Source: Ochrobactrum sp. BTU1
Lineage (GTDB): Bacteria; Pseudomonadota; Alphaproteobacteria; Rhizobiales; Rhizobiaceae
Assembly (NCBI GenBank): GCA_018798825.1
Contig: CP076355.1
Coordinates: 186,001-250,000, forward strand
DNA length: 64,000 nt
Reading direction: 5' to 3'
Positions 10,193 to 45,302 of this stretch are shown here, one piece after another. Below the pieces are notes generated by a model that had not been told where the DNA came from, ran no database searches, and saw only the letters and a list, made by a program, of their open reading frames with translations. Numbering within the stretch: position 1 is the stretch's first letter; every line of letters begins with the position of its first letter. Position numbers and translations under genes: made by a program.

Positions 10193-11137
10193 ATGAATAA
10201 GCTTGCTATGCTGGCGGCTGTTGCTGCCTTTTCGTTGCCTGTTGCTGCTATGGCGCAGGACGGTCCTGGTACTGTTAAAAAAGACAGCTATCGTTTTGTC
10301 ATCGTGCCAAAGGTTGTGCATCCGTGGTTTGACAAGGTGAATGAAGGCGCACAGCAGGCCGCTGCTGCGCTCAAGGCACAGACTGGCGCAAATGTTGAAA
10401 TCGTTTACTCGGCACCACAGAGTGCAGACGTTGTTCAGCAGAATCAGATTATCGACAGCGCGCTTGCCACCCGCCCGGATGGTCTTGCGCTCGATCTGCT
10501 CGATCCGTCGGGCAATCGTGCGTCGCTCGAAGAAGCACAGGGACAGAAGATTCCTCTCGTGCTGTTTGACTCCGTGCCGCCTGAAGGCATGACCATCACG
10601 CACATCGGTTCAGATTTCTGCGAGCAGGCCAAAATTGCTGCCCGTCGTCTGGTCGAAGTGCTGGGTGGTGAAGGCGAAGTCGCAATCATGATGGGCGTGC
10701 CTACCGCACCAAACCATTCGATCCGCGCCGATTGCCATCGCGAAGTGTTCAAAGAACACCCGGGTATCAAGGTTGTTGCTGAAGGCATCGACAATGACAG
10801 CATCGAAATCGCACAGCAGCAGGCAGCCGCCATCATGCAGGCCAATCCAAACCTGAAGGGCTGGGTTGCTTCGGATGCGGCTGGTCCGATCGGTATCGGT
10901 CAGGCTATTGTTGAAGCCGGCAAGCAGGGCAAGGTCACGCTGGTCGGCCTCGACAATCTGCCGGAAATGCTCGACATGATCCGCAATGGCGTGGCTGACA
11001 GCTCATCCGCATCGCAACCTGAATTGCAGGGTTACTGGTCGGTGATGACGCTCTGGGCACAGGCAACCGGCGCTCCGGTTCCTGGCTATATCGACACCGG
11101 CAATGCTTTCCTTACAAAGGAAAACGTAGGCAACTGA
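10193..11137 (+). CDS. CUT2 sugar ABC transporter substrate-binding protein (system 2)
   Basis: 314 residues with a clear Sec signal peptide (MNKLAMLAAVAAFSLPVAAMAQ). The start ATG at 10193 follows AAGGGAGGAATTA. It is a type 1 periplasmic sugar-binding protein: PKVVHPWFDKVNEGAQQAAA is the first strand/helix, DLLDPSGNRASLEEAQGQKIPLVLFDS the hinge region, and AIVEAGKQGKVTLVGLDNLPEMLDMI the distal lobe. It differs clearly from the system-1 protein and is closer to RbsB-like proteins. It is the first gene of the plus-strand operon with ATPase, permease and fused DAK kinase. Confidence 0.9.
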   Translation: MNKLAMLAAVAAFSLPVAAMAQDGPGTVKKDSYRFVIVPKVVHPWFDKVNEGAQQAAAALKAQTGANVEIVYSAPQSADVVQQNQIIDSALATRPDGLALDLLDPSGNRASLEEAQGQKIPLVLFDSVPPEGMTITHIGSDFCEQAKIAARRLVEVLGGEGEVAIMMGVPTAPNHSIRADCHREVFKEHPGIKVVAEGIDNDSIEIAQQQAAAIMQANPNLKGWVASDAAGPIGIGQAIVEAGKQGKVTLVGLDNLPEMLDMIRNGVADSSSASQPELQGYWSVMTLWAQATGAPVPGYIDTGNAFLTKENVGN

Positions 11138-22758: not shown

Positions 22759-23070
22759 GGGTCCGTCCGAATTTCGCGCCGCCCGTTCGTGCCTTCTGGC
22801 ACAAATGACGACTCAGTTTTCACACTAGAAAACGCTTTTTTGGTAAATATGAAATGAATGCTCTCGCAAATGTTAATTGTTATGGCCAGTGTTTGGCAAC
22901 AAGCTGATATGTGTTACAGCTTTGCATCGTTTGAACGGCCTGCCAAAGGGAGGAAAGGTTGGCCCTCAAACATTGGATATTGAATCGCGCCCTATTATTA
23001 TAAGATACTGCTTTAAAAGCGTAATTATCGTATGGTCGGTCGTCTAAAGGCAGTCGAAACGGGTTTAAGT
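22759..23070. other. divergent intergenic region
   Basis: 312 bp between cpdR and the N-formylglutamate amidohydrolase gene. It is AT-rich and presumably holds both promoters. I see no hairpin terminator, repeat or credible ORF in it. Confidence 0.4.
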
Positions 23071-23961
23071 ATGAGTCTGGATCGTGATTTTCATCTGATG
23101 CCCCCTTTCGAGGTCTGTGCACCTGCGCAGCAGCGTATTCCTTTCGTTTTTAATTCTCCCCACAGCGGTCGAGCCTATCCCAATTCATTTCTCGAAGAAT
23201 CGCGGCTGGATGCGCTCGCCATTCGCTATTCCGAAGATTGCTACGTCGATGAGCTTTTTGCAGCAGTGCCTCGCCTTGGCGCGCCGTTGCTCAAAGCCCA
23301 CTTCCCGCGCGCCTTTCTGGACGTAAACCGTGAGCCATACGAGCTTGACCCGCGAATGTTTGCGGAGCCTTTGCCGCCTTACGTGAACAGCCAGTCGGCG
23401 CGTGTTGCGGGCGGTCTGGGCACTGTGCCGCGTCTGGTCGGCGAGGGGCAGCTTATTTATCCTGGCCGCATATCGCTTGAAGAGGCCTATTATCGTATTG
23501 AGGAGCTTTATAAGCCCTATCACCGTGCGCTGGATGGTCTGCTTCAGTCGACCCATGAGCGCTTTGGCTATTCGGTTCTGATCGATTGTCACTCAATGCC
23601 GGGCGGCACGCGCTCCGGCGATGTTGGCGGGCGGCCTGATTTCATCATTGGTGATCGTTTCGGTCGATCCTGCAGCGAGCAGCTGACGCAGGCGGCAATC
23701 GAGTTGCTTCGCGGCCTTGGGTACACTGTCGCACATAACAAGCCTTATGCAGGTGGTTTTATCACGGAGCATTATGGCAGACCTGCTGCAGCCTGTTACG
23801 CGTTGCAGATCGAGATCAATCGCAGTCTCTATATGAATGAGCAGACCTTGCAGAAGCTTGCCGGCTTCGATGCGCTATGCGCCGATCTCTATCAGTTCCT
23901 GAGCGATCTCACGTCCTTGCCGGATGAACTTCTGGTCGTGCGGCCGCTCGCAGCTGAATAG
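23071..23961 (+). CDS. N-formylglutamate amidohydrolase family protein
   Basis: 296 residues from the ATG at 23071; an upstream in-frame ATG at 23032 would add 13 residues, and neither has a strong ribosome-binding site. The family signature FVFNSPHSGRAYP is at the N-terminus, metal-binding residues are in DCHSMPG, and the QIEINRSLYMNEQT motif lies near the end. The enzyme class hydrolyses N-formylglutamate to glutamate and formate at the end of one histidine degradation route. No hut genes are in this window, so the substrate is inferred from family only. Confidence 0.82.
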   Translation: MSLDRDFHLMPPFEVCAPAQQRIPFVFNSPHSGRAYPNSFLEESRLDALAIRYSEDCYVDELFAAVPRLGAPLLKAHFPRAFLDVNREPYELDPRMFAEPLPPYVNSQSARVAGGLGTVPRLVGEGQLIYPGRISLEEAYYRIEELYKPYHRALDGLLQSTHERFGYSVLIDCHSMPGGTRSGDVGGRPDFIIGDRFGRSCSEQLTQAAIELLRGLGYTVAHNKPYAGGFITEHYGRPAAACYALQIEINRSLYMNEQTLQKLAGFDALCADLYQFLSDLTSLPDELLVVRPLAAE

Positions 23962-23990
23962 CTGTCGGGTGCTCTAACACTATATATTTA

Positions 23991-24037
23991 CAGCATAATC
24001 TCACCTTAAACTGGTTCAGGTTTCAGGAATTATGCTG
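23991..24037. repeat. palindromic repeat element
   Basis: CAGCATAAT (23991-23999) and ATTATGCTG (24029-24037) are perfect inverted arms around a 29-bp centre containing AAACTGGTTCAGGTTT. It has a REP-like layout and follows the amidohydrolase gene. Confidence 0.55.
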
Positions 24038-24066
24038 CAGCACAGAAATCTAACATCAAATGCATA

Positions 24067-24154
24067 TAAAAAGAGCCGCGCTCCAAGAAGAAAGCGCGGC
24101 CAAAGACTAGGGAGGAAATGCCCCGAAAGGCACCGACAGGACAGCCTGTCTGAC
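24067..24154 (-). ncRNA. trans-acting small RNA candidate with anti-Shine-Dalgarno loop
   Basis: Read on the minus strand, a TTGACG -35 (24182-24187), a 17-bp spacer and TAACTT (24159-24164) precede about 88 nt of structured sequence. Hairpin 1 is GACAGG-CTGT-CCTGTC (24150-24135). Hairpin 2 is TGCC...GGCA (24132-24119). Then comes an unpaired TTTCCTCCCT (24118-24109), and last a Rho-independent terminator with an 8-bp GC stem (24100-24093 with 24082-24075) followed by TCTTTTT. The CU-rich loop could pair with Shine-Dalgarno sequences, as in rhizobial AbcR- and MmgR-type Hfq-dependent RNAs. Family membership is not proven from sequence alone. Confidence 0.7.
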
Positions 24155-24252
24155 CTTTAAGTTACGCGGCAAAGCTTTATGCGTCAAGGATTTACGCATA
24201 TTTTTTGTGCTAAAAAATAGACAGCTCAAATTGTGAGCAATATTAGGACGAG

Positions 24253-25071
24253 ATGCACATCAATGCATCATCTTATGGAAACGGGAGATTGGGATTGCTG
24301 ATTGATAAGGCATTTTTTTCCGAAGTCGCTTCGGTCGCAGCTGCTGAAACCTTGCCACGGTTTCGCCAGTTCAACGAGATCGACAACAAATATACTTCGG
24401 GATTTGATCCGGTCACGGAAGCCGACCGTGCTGCGGAACGCGCGATTCGTGCAGTCATCGGGCGCGAGTTTCCAGATCACGGCATTCTTGGCGAAGAATA
24501 TGGCCCTGAAAATATCGATCGCAGTCATGTTTGGGTGATCGACCCGGTTGATGGCACCCGCGCTTTCATCTCTGGTCTGCCTGTTTGGGGAACGCTGGTC
24601 GGCCTGACCGTCGATGGCGATGCAAAGGCTGGCATGATGTCCCAGCCTTTCACGGGTGAGCTGTTTTACGGCGATGCCAATGGTTCTTATCTCCTCCGCG
24701 AAGGTGCAGAACCACGTCGGCTTTCTGTGCGCGCTCAGGCAAAGCTTGAAGATGCGACCATGTTCACCACCACGCCGGCACTTTTCAAGGGCGATCTGCG
24801 TAAGGGCTTTGACCGACTGGAAAATGCGGTGCGTCTGTCGCGTTACGGCGTTGATTGCTATGCCTTTGCGATGCTGGCAAGTGGCTTTGCCGATATCGTC
24901 GTGGAAGCGGGCCTTCAGCCCTATGATATCGTGGCGCTCATTCCAATCATCGAGCAGGCGGGTGGCGTTGTCACGCAGCGTGACGGCGGCCCGGCAGAAA
25001 AGGGCGGTGATGTTGTTGCCGCAGCTTCACCAGCACTGCACAAGGCCGCTCTTGATTTGCTGAACAGCTGA
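24253..25071 (+). CDS. hisN: histidinol-phosphatase, inositol monophosphatase family
   Basis: 272 residues. Metal-binding motifs of the IMPase superfamily are clear: GEEYGPE (Glu), WVIDPVDGTRAFISGLPVWGT (DPxDGT) and GVDCYAFAMLASGFADIVVEAGLQPYDI with the late Asp. The alphaproteobacterial branch with this RAFISGLPVWGTLVG wording is the histidinol-phosphatase HisN of histidine synthesis; other inositol- or sugar-phosphatase roles are possible. The ATG at 24253 follows AGGACGAG. The end lies 3 bp from the convergent hydrolase gene. Confidence 0.85.
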   Translation: MHINASSYGNGRLGLLIDKAFFSEVASVAAAETLPRFRQFNEIDNKYTSGFDPVTEADRAAERAIRAVIGREFPDHGILGEEYGPENIDRSHVWVIDPVDGTRAFISGLPVWGTLVGLTVDGDAKAGMMSQPFTGELFYGDANGSYLLREGAEPRRLSVRAQAKLEDATMFTTTPALFKGDLRKGFDRLENAVRLSRYGVDCYAFAMLASGFADIVVEAGLQPYDIVALIPIIEQAGGVVTQRDGGPAEKGGDVVAAASPALHKAALDLLNS

Positions 25072-43589: not shown

Positions 43590-45302
43590 ATGCCAGCCAG
43601 AATTAGTCGCGTCACATATGCGCAGATGTTCGGCCCGACCACCGGAGACAAGGTTCGGCTTGCCGATACGGAGCTGTTTATCGAAGTCGAAAAAGATATG
43701 ACCGTCCATGGCGAGGAGGTGAAGTTCGGTGGTGGCAAGGTTATCCGTGACGGTATGGGGCAAAGCCAGCTATCGCGCGCACAAGGCGCTATGGATACTG
43801 TCATCACCAATGCGCTGATCCTTGATCATACCGGCATTTACAAGGCCGATGTCGGTCTGCTCGACGGGCGTATTGCGGGCATCGGCAAAGCCGGCAATCC
43901 TGATACTCAGCCCGGTGTAACGATTATCATCGGCCCCGGCACGGAGATCATAGCAGGCGAAGGCCGTATCCTGACTGCGGGTGCTATTGATTCACATATC
44001 CATTTCATTTCGCCACAGCAGGTGGAAGAAGCTTTGAACTCTGGTGTCACCTGTATGGTCGGTGGCGGCACCGGTCCGGCACATGGTACCCTTGCTACCA
44101 CCTGCACTCCGGGACCGTGGAACATTGCTCGTTTGATCCAGTCATTTGACGGCATGGCGATGAATTTCGGCGTGTTTGGCAAGGGCAATGCATCCTTGCC
44201 CGGCGCACTGGAGGAAATGGTGCTTGCTGGTGCTTGCGGTCTGAAACTCCATGAAGATTGGGGAACGACCCCGGCCTCTATCGACAATTGCCTTGATGTC
44301 GCGGACCGGTTTGATGTGCAGGTGGCAATCCATACCGACACGCTCAATGAATCGGGCTTTGTTGAAGATACGCTTGCTGCTTTCAAAGGGCGCACGATCC
44401 ATTCATTTCATACCGAAGGTGCAGGTGGCGGGCACGCCCCCGATATCATACGCGTCTGCCAATATCCGAACGTATTGCCCGCTTCGACCAACCCCACACG
44501 GCCTTATACGGTCAATACGGTGGCCGAACATCTCGATATGCTGATGGTCTGCCATCACCTGTCGCCATCTATCCCGGAAGACATAGCCTTTGCTGAAAGT
44601 CGCATCCGCAAGGAAACGATTGCCGCCGAAGATATTCTGCATGACATGGGTGCTTTCTCTATCATCTCATCAGACAGTCAGGCCATGGGCCGTGTTGGCG
44701 AAATGATTATTCGCTGCTGGCAAACTGCCGACAAGATGAAGCGGCAACGAGGCGCACTCTCTGAAGATGTACCAGGCAATGATAATTACCGTGCCCGTCG
44801 CTATGTTGCGAAATATACGATCAACCCAGCAATTGCGCATGGCATGTCGCATGAGATTGGTTCGGTCGAAGTTGGAAAGCGCGCCGATCTGGTATTGTGG
44901 AATCCGGCATTCTTTGGGGTAAAGCCAGATTTCGTATTGCTTGGCGGCTGGATTGCAACCGCCCCGATGGGCGACCCAAATGCTTCCATTCCCACGCCGC
45001 AACCCATGCATTACAGGCCTATGTTCGGCTCGTTCGGCAAGGCGCGCACTAACAGCTCGATAACATTCGTTTCTGAAGCCGCGATGGCTGCAGGTTTGCG
45101 GGAGTCGATTGGGGTGGACAAACGAATGCTTGCGATCAAAAATACGCGCGGTGGTATTGGCAAACGCTCGATGATTTTGAATGATGCCATGCCGCAGATT
45201 GAAGTCGACCCGGAAACCTACGAAGTGCGGGCCAATGGTGAGCTTTTGACTTGCGAGCCAGCGGATGTCGTTCCGATGGCTCAACGCTACTTCCTGTTTT
45301 AA
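43590..45302 (+). CDS. ureC: urease alpha (catalytic) subunit
   Basis: 570 residues. Nickel ligands and active-site groups are all visible: DSHIHFISP (His pair), GLKLHEDWG (carbamylated Lys), AIHTDTLNE and [13 protein letters not shown] (His), [22 protein letters not shown] (mobile flap with Cys and His) and [12 protein letters not shown] (Asp). It hydrolyses urea to ammonia and carbamate in the cytoplasm. In Brucella this urease supports survival of gastric acid; a nitrogen-nutrition role is equally likely in a soil relative. Confidence 0.98.

What the first reader, a model, noticed from the sequence alone, without database searches (positions are those of the whole stretch)
24067..24187. 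Unannotated minus-strand small RNA with anti-Shine-Dalgarno loop
A 291-bp gap between two plus-strand genes contains, on the minus strand, a -35/-10 pair with 17-bp spacing, two compact hairpins, an exposed TTTCCTCCCT and a textbook Rho-independent terminator, all within about 120 bp. No minus-strand gene upstream could use this terminator, so a free-standing transcript of about 88 nt is the simplest reading. The CU-rich loop could pair with AGGGAGG-type ribosome-binding sites, including those of ABC transporter binding-protein genes such as the one at 10193 in this same window.
Basis: partly seen in the sequence, partly recalled or inferred. Interest (0 to 1): 0.75.

Follow-up and report, generated by a model that had tools for sequence, protein, structure and literature searches.

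The report
MmgR small RNA without its granules
The spotted gene is a known kind of bacterial small regulatory RNA (MmgR), but in this genus it survives although the storage-granule pathway it is known for, and the repressor that normally controls it, appear to be gone.

Summary
In detail: a minus-strand sRNA gene with promoter, two hairpins, an exposed UUUCCUCCCU and a terminator lies at 24187-24064. It is not a new family. Rfam places it in RF00519 suhB/mmgR (54.1 bits, cut-off 41), the alpha-r8 family, often found beside an N-formylglutamate amidohydrolase gene, as here.

The new part is evolutionary. A 22-nt core is identical in 32 of 35 genus genomes. Yet PhaR, MmgR's repressor in Sinorhizobium, is found in 0 of 35, PhaC in 1 and phasin in 1. 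Outside the genus PhaR and PhaC are in 50 of 50 genomes examined, and 61 of 62 mmgR promoters carry a PhaR box at one fixed place. No genus promoter has a perfect box there. One clade of three, including Falsochrobactrum, also lost mmgR.

Most likely mechanism: Hfq-assisted blocking of ribosome-binding sites, now uncoupled from PHB control.

The parts
24067..24154 (-). mmgR (alpha-r8, RF00519) sRNA, predicted transcript of about 88 nt; Rfam match 24059-24138
   Evidence: transcript ends predicted, not observed
24182..24187 (-). -35 element TTGACG; TTGAC present in all 32 genus loci aligned
24159..24164 (-). -10-like element TAACTT, 17-base spacer
24165..24181 (-). -35/-10 spacer; the place where 61 of 62 non-genus mmgR promoters carry a PhaR box, absent here
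24135..24150 (-). 5' hairpin GACAGG/CCTGTC
24118..24133 (-). second hairpin (TGCC/GGCA core)
24109..24118 (-). TTTCCTCCCT, conserved unpaired seed (anti-Shine-Dalgarno); its first T can close the second hairpin
24064..24101 (-). Rho-independent terminator, stem 24101-24074 plus T-rich tail
23032..23961 (+). N-formylglutamate amidohydrolase gene (PF05013), the usual neighbour of mmgR
24289..25071 (+). Inositol monophosphatase family gene (PF00459, suhB-type), divergent from mmgR; start TTG 24289 inferred (ORF list: ATG 24253)

Best explanation
This is mmgR, the alpha-r8 (RF00519) trans-acting sRNA. It is transcribed from its own promoter as about 88 nt and ends at an intrinsic terminator. With Hfq it uses the unpaired UUUCCUCCCU to pair with AGGGAGG-type ribosome-binding sites and blocks translation, most likely of nutrient-uptake and envelope genes. 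In this genus it has been uncoupled from PHB metabolism: the PhaR repressor, the PhaR operator in its promoter, and (in 34 of 35 genomes) PHB synthase and phasin are missing, while the RNA is kept. Shown here: family, structure, conservation, and absence of operator, repressor and PHB genes. Shown elsewhere for relatives: seed pairing at a ribosome-binding site (Caulobacter SisA) and PhaR binding to the mmgR promoter (S. meliloti). Inferred: expression, Hfq binding and all targets in this organism.
For: RF00519 at 54.1 bits, E 2.5e-8. 22-nt core exact in 32 of 35 genus genomes; 10-mer next to the FGase gene in 74 of 80 FGase loci. PhaR 0 of 35, PhaC 1 of 35, phasin 1 of 35 in the genus, Caulobacter control positive each time, against PhaR and PhaC in 50 of 50 non-genus genomes. 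PhaR core in 61 of 62 non-genus mmgR promoters, at offset 10 or 11 from the start of TTGAC; no perfect core at that offset in 32 genus promoters. G057, of another family, has mmgR, no PhaR and no box. Hfq gene present. Direct seed pairing and repression by the same 10-mer in Caulobacter (PMC12559287, section 8 read); PhaR gel shift on the S. meliloti mmgR promoter (PMC12542648, passages).
Against: No transcript, Hfq binding or target was observed. AGGGAGGAA sites are about as dense in mmgR-less genomes (20 in 10.6 Mb) as in mmgR-bearing ones (41 in 18.9 Mb), so no target signal specific to mmgR was found. One genus promoter has a one-mismatch PhaR core at the old place (offset 11), and one has a perfect core elsewhere (offset 6). 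Tianweitania (L173) has PhaR but no box. G033 does have PhaC and phasin. The genus genomes are related, so the 32 promoters are not independent cases.
Confidence: 0.8

Rival explanations
1. MmgR here is largely redundant with the three AbcR (ar15) RNAs and acts on the same ABC/TRAP transporter mRNAs as an additional anti-Shine-Dalgarno RNA; this is.
For: Three ar15 genes in the own genome. Seeds overlap (CCUCCC), duplex energies for the 10193 gene are similar, and many AGGGAGGAA sites precede transport genes as judged by eye.
Against: The 22 nt around the seed, not only CCUCCC, are identical in 32 genomes, more than generic Shine-Dalgarno pairing needs. The promoter is conserved separately.
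Confidence: 0.3
2. MmgR is under no strong present function in this genus and is a relic kept by short evolutionary time after loss of PHB metabolism.
For: Its known role and its repressor are gone; one clade of three lost it without losing the neighbouring genes.
Against: The 10-mer, the 22-nt core, the terminator and TTGAC are conserved across the genus while the flanks, the hairpin loops and the spacer diverge; the FGase protein differs by up to 19% among the genus members compared with the window.
Confidence: 0.08
3. It is a cis element, attenuator or antisense RNA of the neighbouring suhB-type gene.
For: The promoter lies in the region shared with the divergent IMPase gene, and the family was first noticed upstream of suhB (PMC1273637, passages).
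Against: The RNA runs away from IMPase and converges on FGase without overlapping either. The 2005 paper itself discarded the cis reading. Caulobacter holds four copies at different places (PMC12559287, section 7 read).
Confidence: 0.03

Closest known systems
MmgR (alpha-r8, Rfam RF00519 suhB) of Sinorhizobium meliloti
   Same: Family model over the cut-off, 10-mer seed, terminator; in the mmgR loci of relatives also the place beside FGase.
   Different: No PhaR box in the promoter, no PhaR gene, and PHB synthase and phasin missing in 34 of 35 genus genomes; so limiting PHB granules cannot be its job in this strain (G000 has none of the three).
SisA-D (alpha-r8) of Caulobacter crescentus
   Same: Same 10-mer, hairpin plus terminator layout; SisA lies downstream of an FGase gene (PMC12559287, sections 7 and 8 read).
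   Different: Four copies there against one mmgR found here; no sponge RNA like CrfA was looked for here.
AbcR1/AbcR2 (RF02345 ar15; the equation ar15 = AbcR is recalled)
   Same: CCUCCC seed against Shine-Dalgarno sequences, terminator, same Rfam clan CL00108.
   Different: Longer, with a second module GTTCCCCTCTGGAGG that the window RNA lacks; three separate copies in the own genome.
NfeR1 (alpha-r14)
   Same: Anti-Shine-Dalgarno motifs in an Rhizobiales sRNA.
   Different: Described with three hairpins carrying the motif in all loops (PMC7143759, passages); here the motif occurs once, between hairpins.

Membership tests
alpha-r8 / RF00519 mmgR | Covariance model match over the gathering score | tested here: met
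   54.1 bits against 41, positions 1-77 of 77. Caution: some ar15 genes also pass 41 bits.
alpha-r8 / RF00519 mmgR | Single-stranded UUUCCUCCCU downstream of a hairpin, then a Rho-independent terminator | tested here: met
alpha-r8 / RF00519 mmgR | Usual single copy next to an FGase gene (PMC12559287, section 7) | tested here: met
   FGase PF05013 at 23032-23961; 10-mer beside FGase in 74 of 80 loci
alpha-r8 / RF00519 mmgR | Hfq-dependent trans-acting RNA | not testable with these tools
   Only the presence of an hfq gene was shown
MmgR as known in S. meliloti (typical, not family-defining) | PhaR box between -35 and -10, PhaR present | tested here: not met
   No perfect box at the fixed offset in 32 genus promoters; PhaR 0 of 35
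MmgR as known in S. meliloti (typical, not family-defining) | PHB synthase and phasins present to be controlled | tested here: not met
   PhaC 1 of 35, phasin 1 of 35, own genome none
AbcR, ar15 (RF02345) | Second module GTTCCCCTCTGGAGG after the CCUCCC seed (recalled as AbcR feature; seen in the ar15 hits) | tested here: not met
   Absent from the window RNA, present in the ar15 copies. The Rfam scan keeps only the best family of a clan, so it gives no separate ar15 score here.
   The motif occurs once, unpaired between hairpins

The most novel reading that the evidence does not exclude
MmgR has outlived both its repressor and the pathway it is named after: in Ochrobactrum/Brucella-type bacteria it is a stand-alone regulator of nutrient-uptake and envelope genes, controlled through newly conserved promoter stretches (a GCYYA...TGAGC dyad and GCTCAAAAAATATGCG) instead of PhaR. 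Control of PHB would then be an addition in PHB-making lineages and not the founding job of alpha-r8 sRNAs.
Probability: 0.5. Interest if true: 0.6.

Novelty: new member of a known kind. Interest (0 to 1): 0.42.

Why it matters
MmgR is cited as a PHB regulator, and whether alpha-r8 sRNAs serve carbon metabolism in general is left open in the discussion of the 2025 Caulobacter paper (PMC12559287, passage). A genus that keeps the RNA but has no PHB system separates the two roles: a phenotype found there cannot be due to granules. The matched absence of PhaR and of its operator, seen again in one genome of another family (G057), is a clear case of a small RNA whose input changed while its seed stayed fixed.

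Tried and rejected
Extra mmgR copies: the other three RF00519 hits of the own genome, and the second hits scanned in G003, G030, G001 and G033, are ar15. In G026 the better hit (56.2 bits) carries the ar15 module by eye (not itself scanned with Rfam) and the 53.6-bit hit is the mmgR. So a paralogue story was dropped.

Targets by ribosome-binding site: 61 distinct AGGGAGGAA-N(1-9)-ATG sites in 7 genomes; 60 were fetched and read, one G013 site was not. Many precede substrate-binding proteins and other transport genes, judged by eye, without Pfam. Density is 41 sites in 18.9 Mb for four mmgR-bearing genomes and 20 in 10.6 Mb for three mmgR-less ones, so no specific signal. A DJ-1/PfpI-like gene has the site in G000, G031 and G009 and in none of the three mmgR-less lists; whether the orthologue exists there was not checked. 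The 13-base perfect match before an outer-membrane barrel gene on replicon C4 (L231; PF13505; -29.0 kcal/mol, best of the 12 sites scored) is not kept upstream of two plasmid homologues of 75% and 66% identity, so it stays a strain-level lead.

Remnant of the PhaR box in the genus: best mismatch counts 0:1, 1:3, 2:18, 3:9, 4:1 of 32, against shuffles 0.3%, 6.2%, 32.2%, 53.0%, 8.3%. A slight excess at 2 mismatches; related sequences, so not weighed further.

mmgR on plasmids: only a 66-base match outside the RNA was found.

Chance fold: rejected.

Full report
What is there. The minus strand at 24187-24064 carries TTGACG, a 17-base spacer, TAACTT, then about 88 nt with two hairpins, an unpaired TTTCCTCCCT and a GC-rich terminator with a T run. 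The 91-nt RNA folds at -34.8 kcal/mol, z -3.39, and none of 200 shuffles reaches it. The strict promoter scan does not list the weak promoter, and terminator-like sites are only mildly above chance in this region (15 against 10.6, sd 2.7). The stronger evidence is conservation.

What it is. Rfam places 24059-24138 (-) in RF00519 suhB/mmgR with 54.1 bits (cut-off 41, E 2.5e-8 for the window), over positions 1-77 of 77. The neighbours are an FGase gene (PF05013) and an inositol monophosphatase gene (PF00459). The family was described in 2005 as an sRNA on the strand opposite to suhB (PMC1273637, passages). The FGase link and the 10-mer are given in PMC12559287 (outline, sections 7-9 and passages read).

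Copies. Three other RF00519 hits in the own genome are ar15, i.e. AbcR (RF02345 at 77.0, 65.3 and 76.9 bits). One mmgR core was found in the own genome. RF00519 alone is not a safe test in this group: the own-genome C3 ar15 gene scores 42.1 bits with it, over the cut-off.

Conservation. A 22-nt core matches exactly in 32 of 35 genus genomes. In the alignment of 32 members (24 distinct) the three helices pair in 99.1% of cells; 3 pairs show a double change (20 of 500 shuffles reach this), 3 of 500 shuffles reach the covariation score, and further pair types are not above shuffles (411 of 500). In the three genomes without the core (G004, G025, G032) FGase and IMPase are still neighbours, with only 45-49 bp between the matched parts, against 246-518 bp in the 32 genus loci that have it. 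The three form one clade (support 0.97) nested among mmgR-bearing members in an FGase plus IMPase tree, so one secondary loss is the simplest reading.

The missing pathway. In S. meliloti MmgR limits PHB, PhaP1 and PhaP2 proteins rise in the mutant, and AniA (PhaR) represses mmgR while NtrC raises it (PMC8401924, passages). PhaR binds the mmgR promoter in gel shifts (PMC12542648, passages). The 2017 paper itself is not held. In this genus PhaR (PF07879) is found in 0 of 35 genomes, PHB synthase (PF07167) in 1 and phasin (PF09361) in 1; the one exception, G033, has two PhaC and one phasin on a 90-kb contig. Caulobacter rings as control in all three searches. Outside the genus PhaR is in 50 of 50 and PhaC in 50 of 50 genomes. 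These are 50 of the 67 non-genus FGase loci; 17 were left out because of a 50-locus limit.

The missing operator. Of the 67 non-genus loci 62 have the exact 10-mer. In 61 of these 62 the PhaR core YGCRNYGCR is perfect and starts 10 (58 loci) or 11 (3 loci) bases from the start of TTGAC. The exception is Tianweitania (L173), which does have PhaR. Of the five non-genus loci without the exact 10-mer, L166 and L169 keep TTCCTCCCT; all five of these genomes have PhaR and PhaC, so mmgR can also be lost or altered where PHB genes stay. Of 32 genus promoters none has a perfect core at that place. One has a one-mismatch core there (offset 11), two have a one-mismatch core at offset 16, and one (L077) has a perfect core at offset 6.

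Order level. In 13 of 13 PhaR-bearing genomes whose best mmgR locus was held, at least one mmgR copy has a PhaR core in the 85 bp read upstream; in three of them (G045, G054, G050) it lies only nearer the start site than the usual place. G057, of another family, has mmgR at 64.2 bits, no PhaR, and no PhaR core upstream of that copy or of its two weaker hits. In the other direction, G035 has PhaR but no room for mmgR at its FGase locus. So mmgR and PHB are separable both ways.

How it most likely works. The 10-mer is invariant here and is a proven seed in Caulobacter, where SisA represses a TonB-receptor mRNA at a site upstream of the start codon and compensatory changes restore repression. Hfq is encoded in the own genome. 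I therefore expect blocking of ribosome-binding sites of several mRNAs; which ones is unknown. Site density is similar in mmgR-bearing and mmgR-less genomes (41 in 18.9 Mb, 20 in 10.6 Mb).

Promoter. In place of the PhaR box the genus shows other conserved stretches upstream of TTGAC: a GCYYA...TGAGC dyad and GCTCAAAAAATATGCG. They may bind another regulator or help RNA polymerase; this was not tested.

In print. Searches of the held library listed no paper that, from title and start of abstract, treats mmgR in Ochrobactrum or Brucella or reports this loss of the operator. A review of Brucella sRNAs holds neither 'suhB' nor 'MmgR' (PMC9751625, term search). The 2016 phylogeny of the family and the 2018 promoter paper were seen only as references and may already contain part of this.

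Verdict. The absence of PhaR, of its operator and of PHB genes around a preserved sRNA is the part worth following.

Noticed in passing
window 43746-44031 (-): Rfam 5_ureB_sRNA (RF02514, 96.3 bits) lies opposite a plus-strand ORF of 570 aa that starts near 43719; probably a match to conserved urease coding sequence read from the other strand, not an sRNA. The urease identity was not tested.
   Followed up: partly
window 23971-24036: A short dyad-bearing repeat (GCATAATC...GGAATTATGC) between FGase and mmgR; a 66-base match at 82-86% identity occurs on Pseudochrobactrum plasmids, only one copy in the window.
   Followed up: partly
G057 (L009, L281-L283): A genome of another family with mmgR but no PhaR also lacks the PhaR box, a second case of the same loss.
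   Followed up: partly
L031, L032, L033 (G000 C3, C2, C1): Three ar15 (AbcR) genes in the own genome, one on the 1.0-Mb replicon C3; RF00519 scores that one 42.1 bits, over its cut-off, so automatic annotation could call it mmgR.
   Followed up: yes
L231:208-967 (-), G000 C4: An outer-membrane barrel gene with AGGGAGGAAATGC before its start, a 13-base perfect complement of MmgR; not kept in two plasmid homologues.
   Followed up: partly
L185-L187 (G033 C6): The only genus genome with PhaC (two) and a phasin, all on one 90-kb contig; gain by transfer or contamination was not checked.
   Followed up: no
window 24253-24289: The IMPase gene probably starts at TTG 24289 and not at ATG 24253, judging by L083.
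   Followed up: partly
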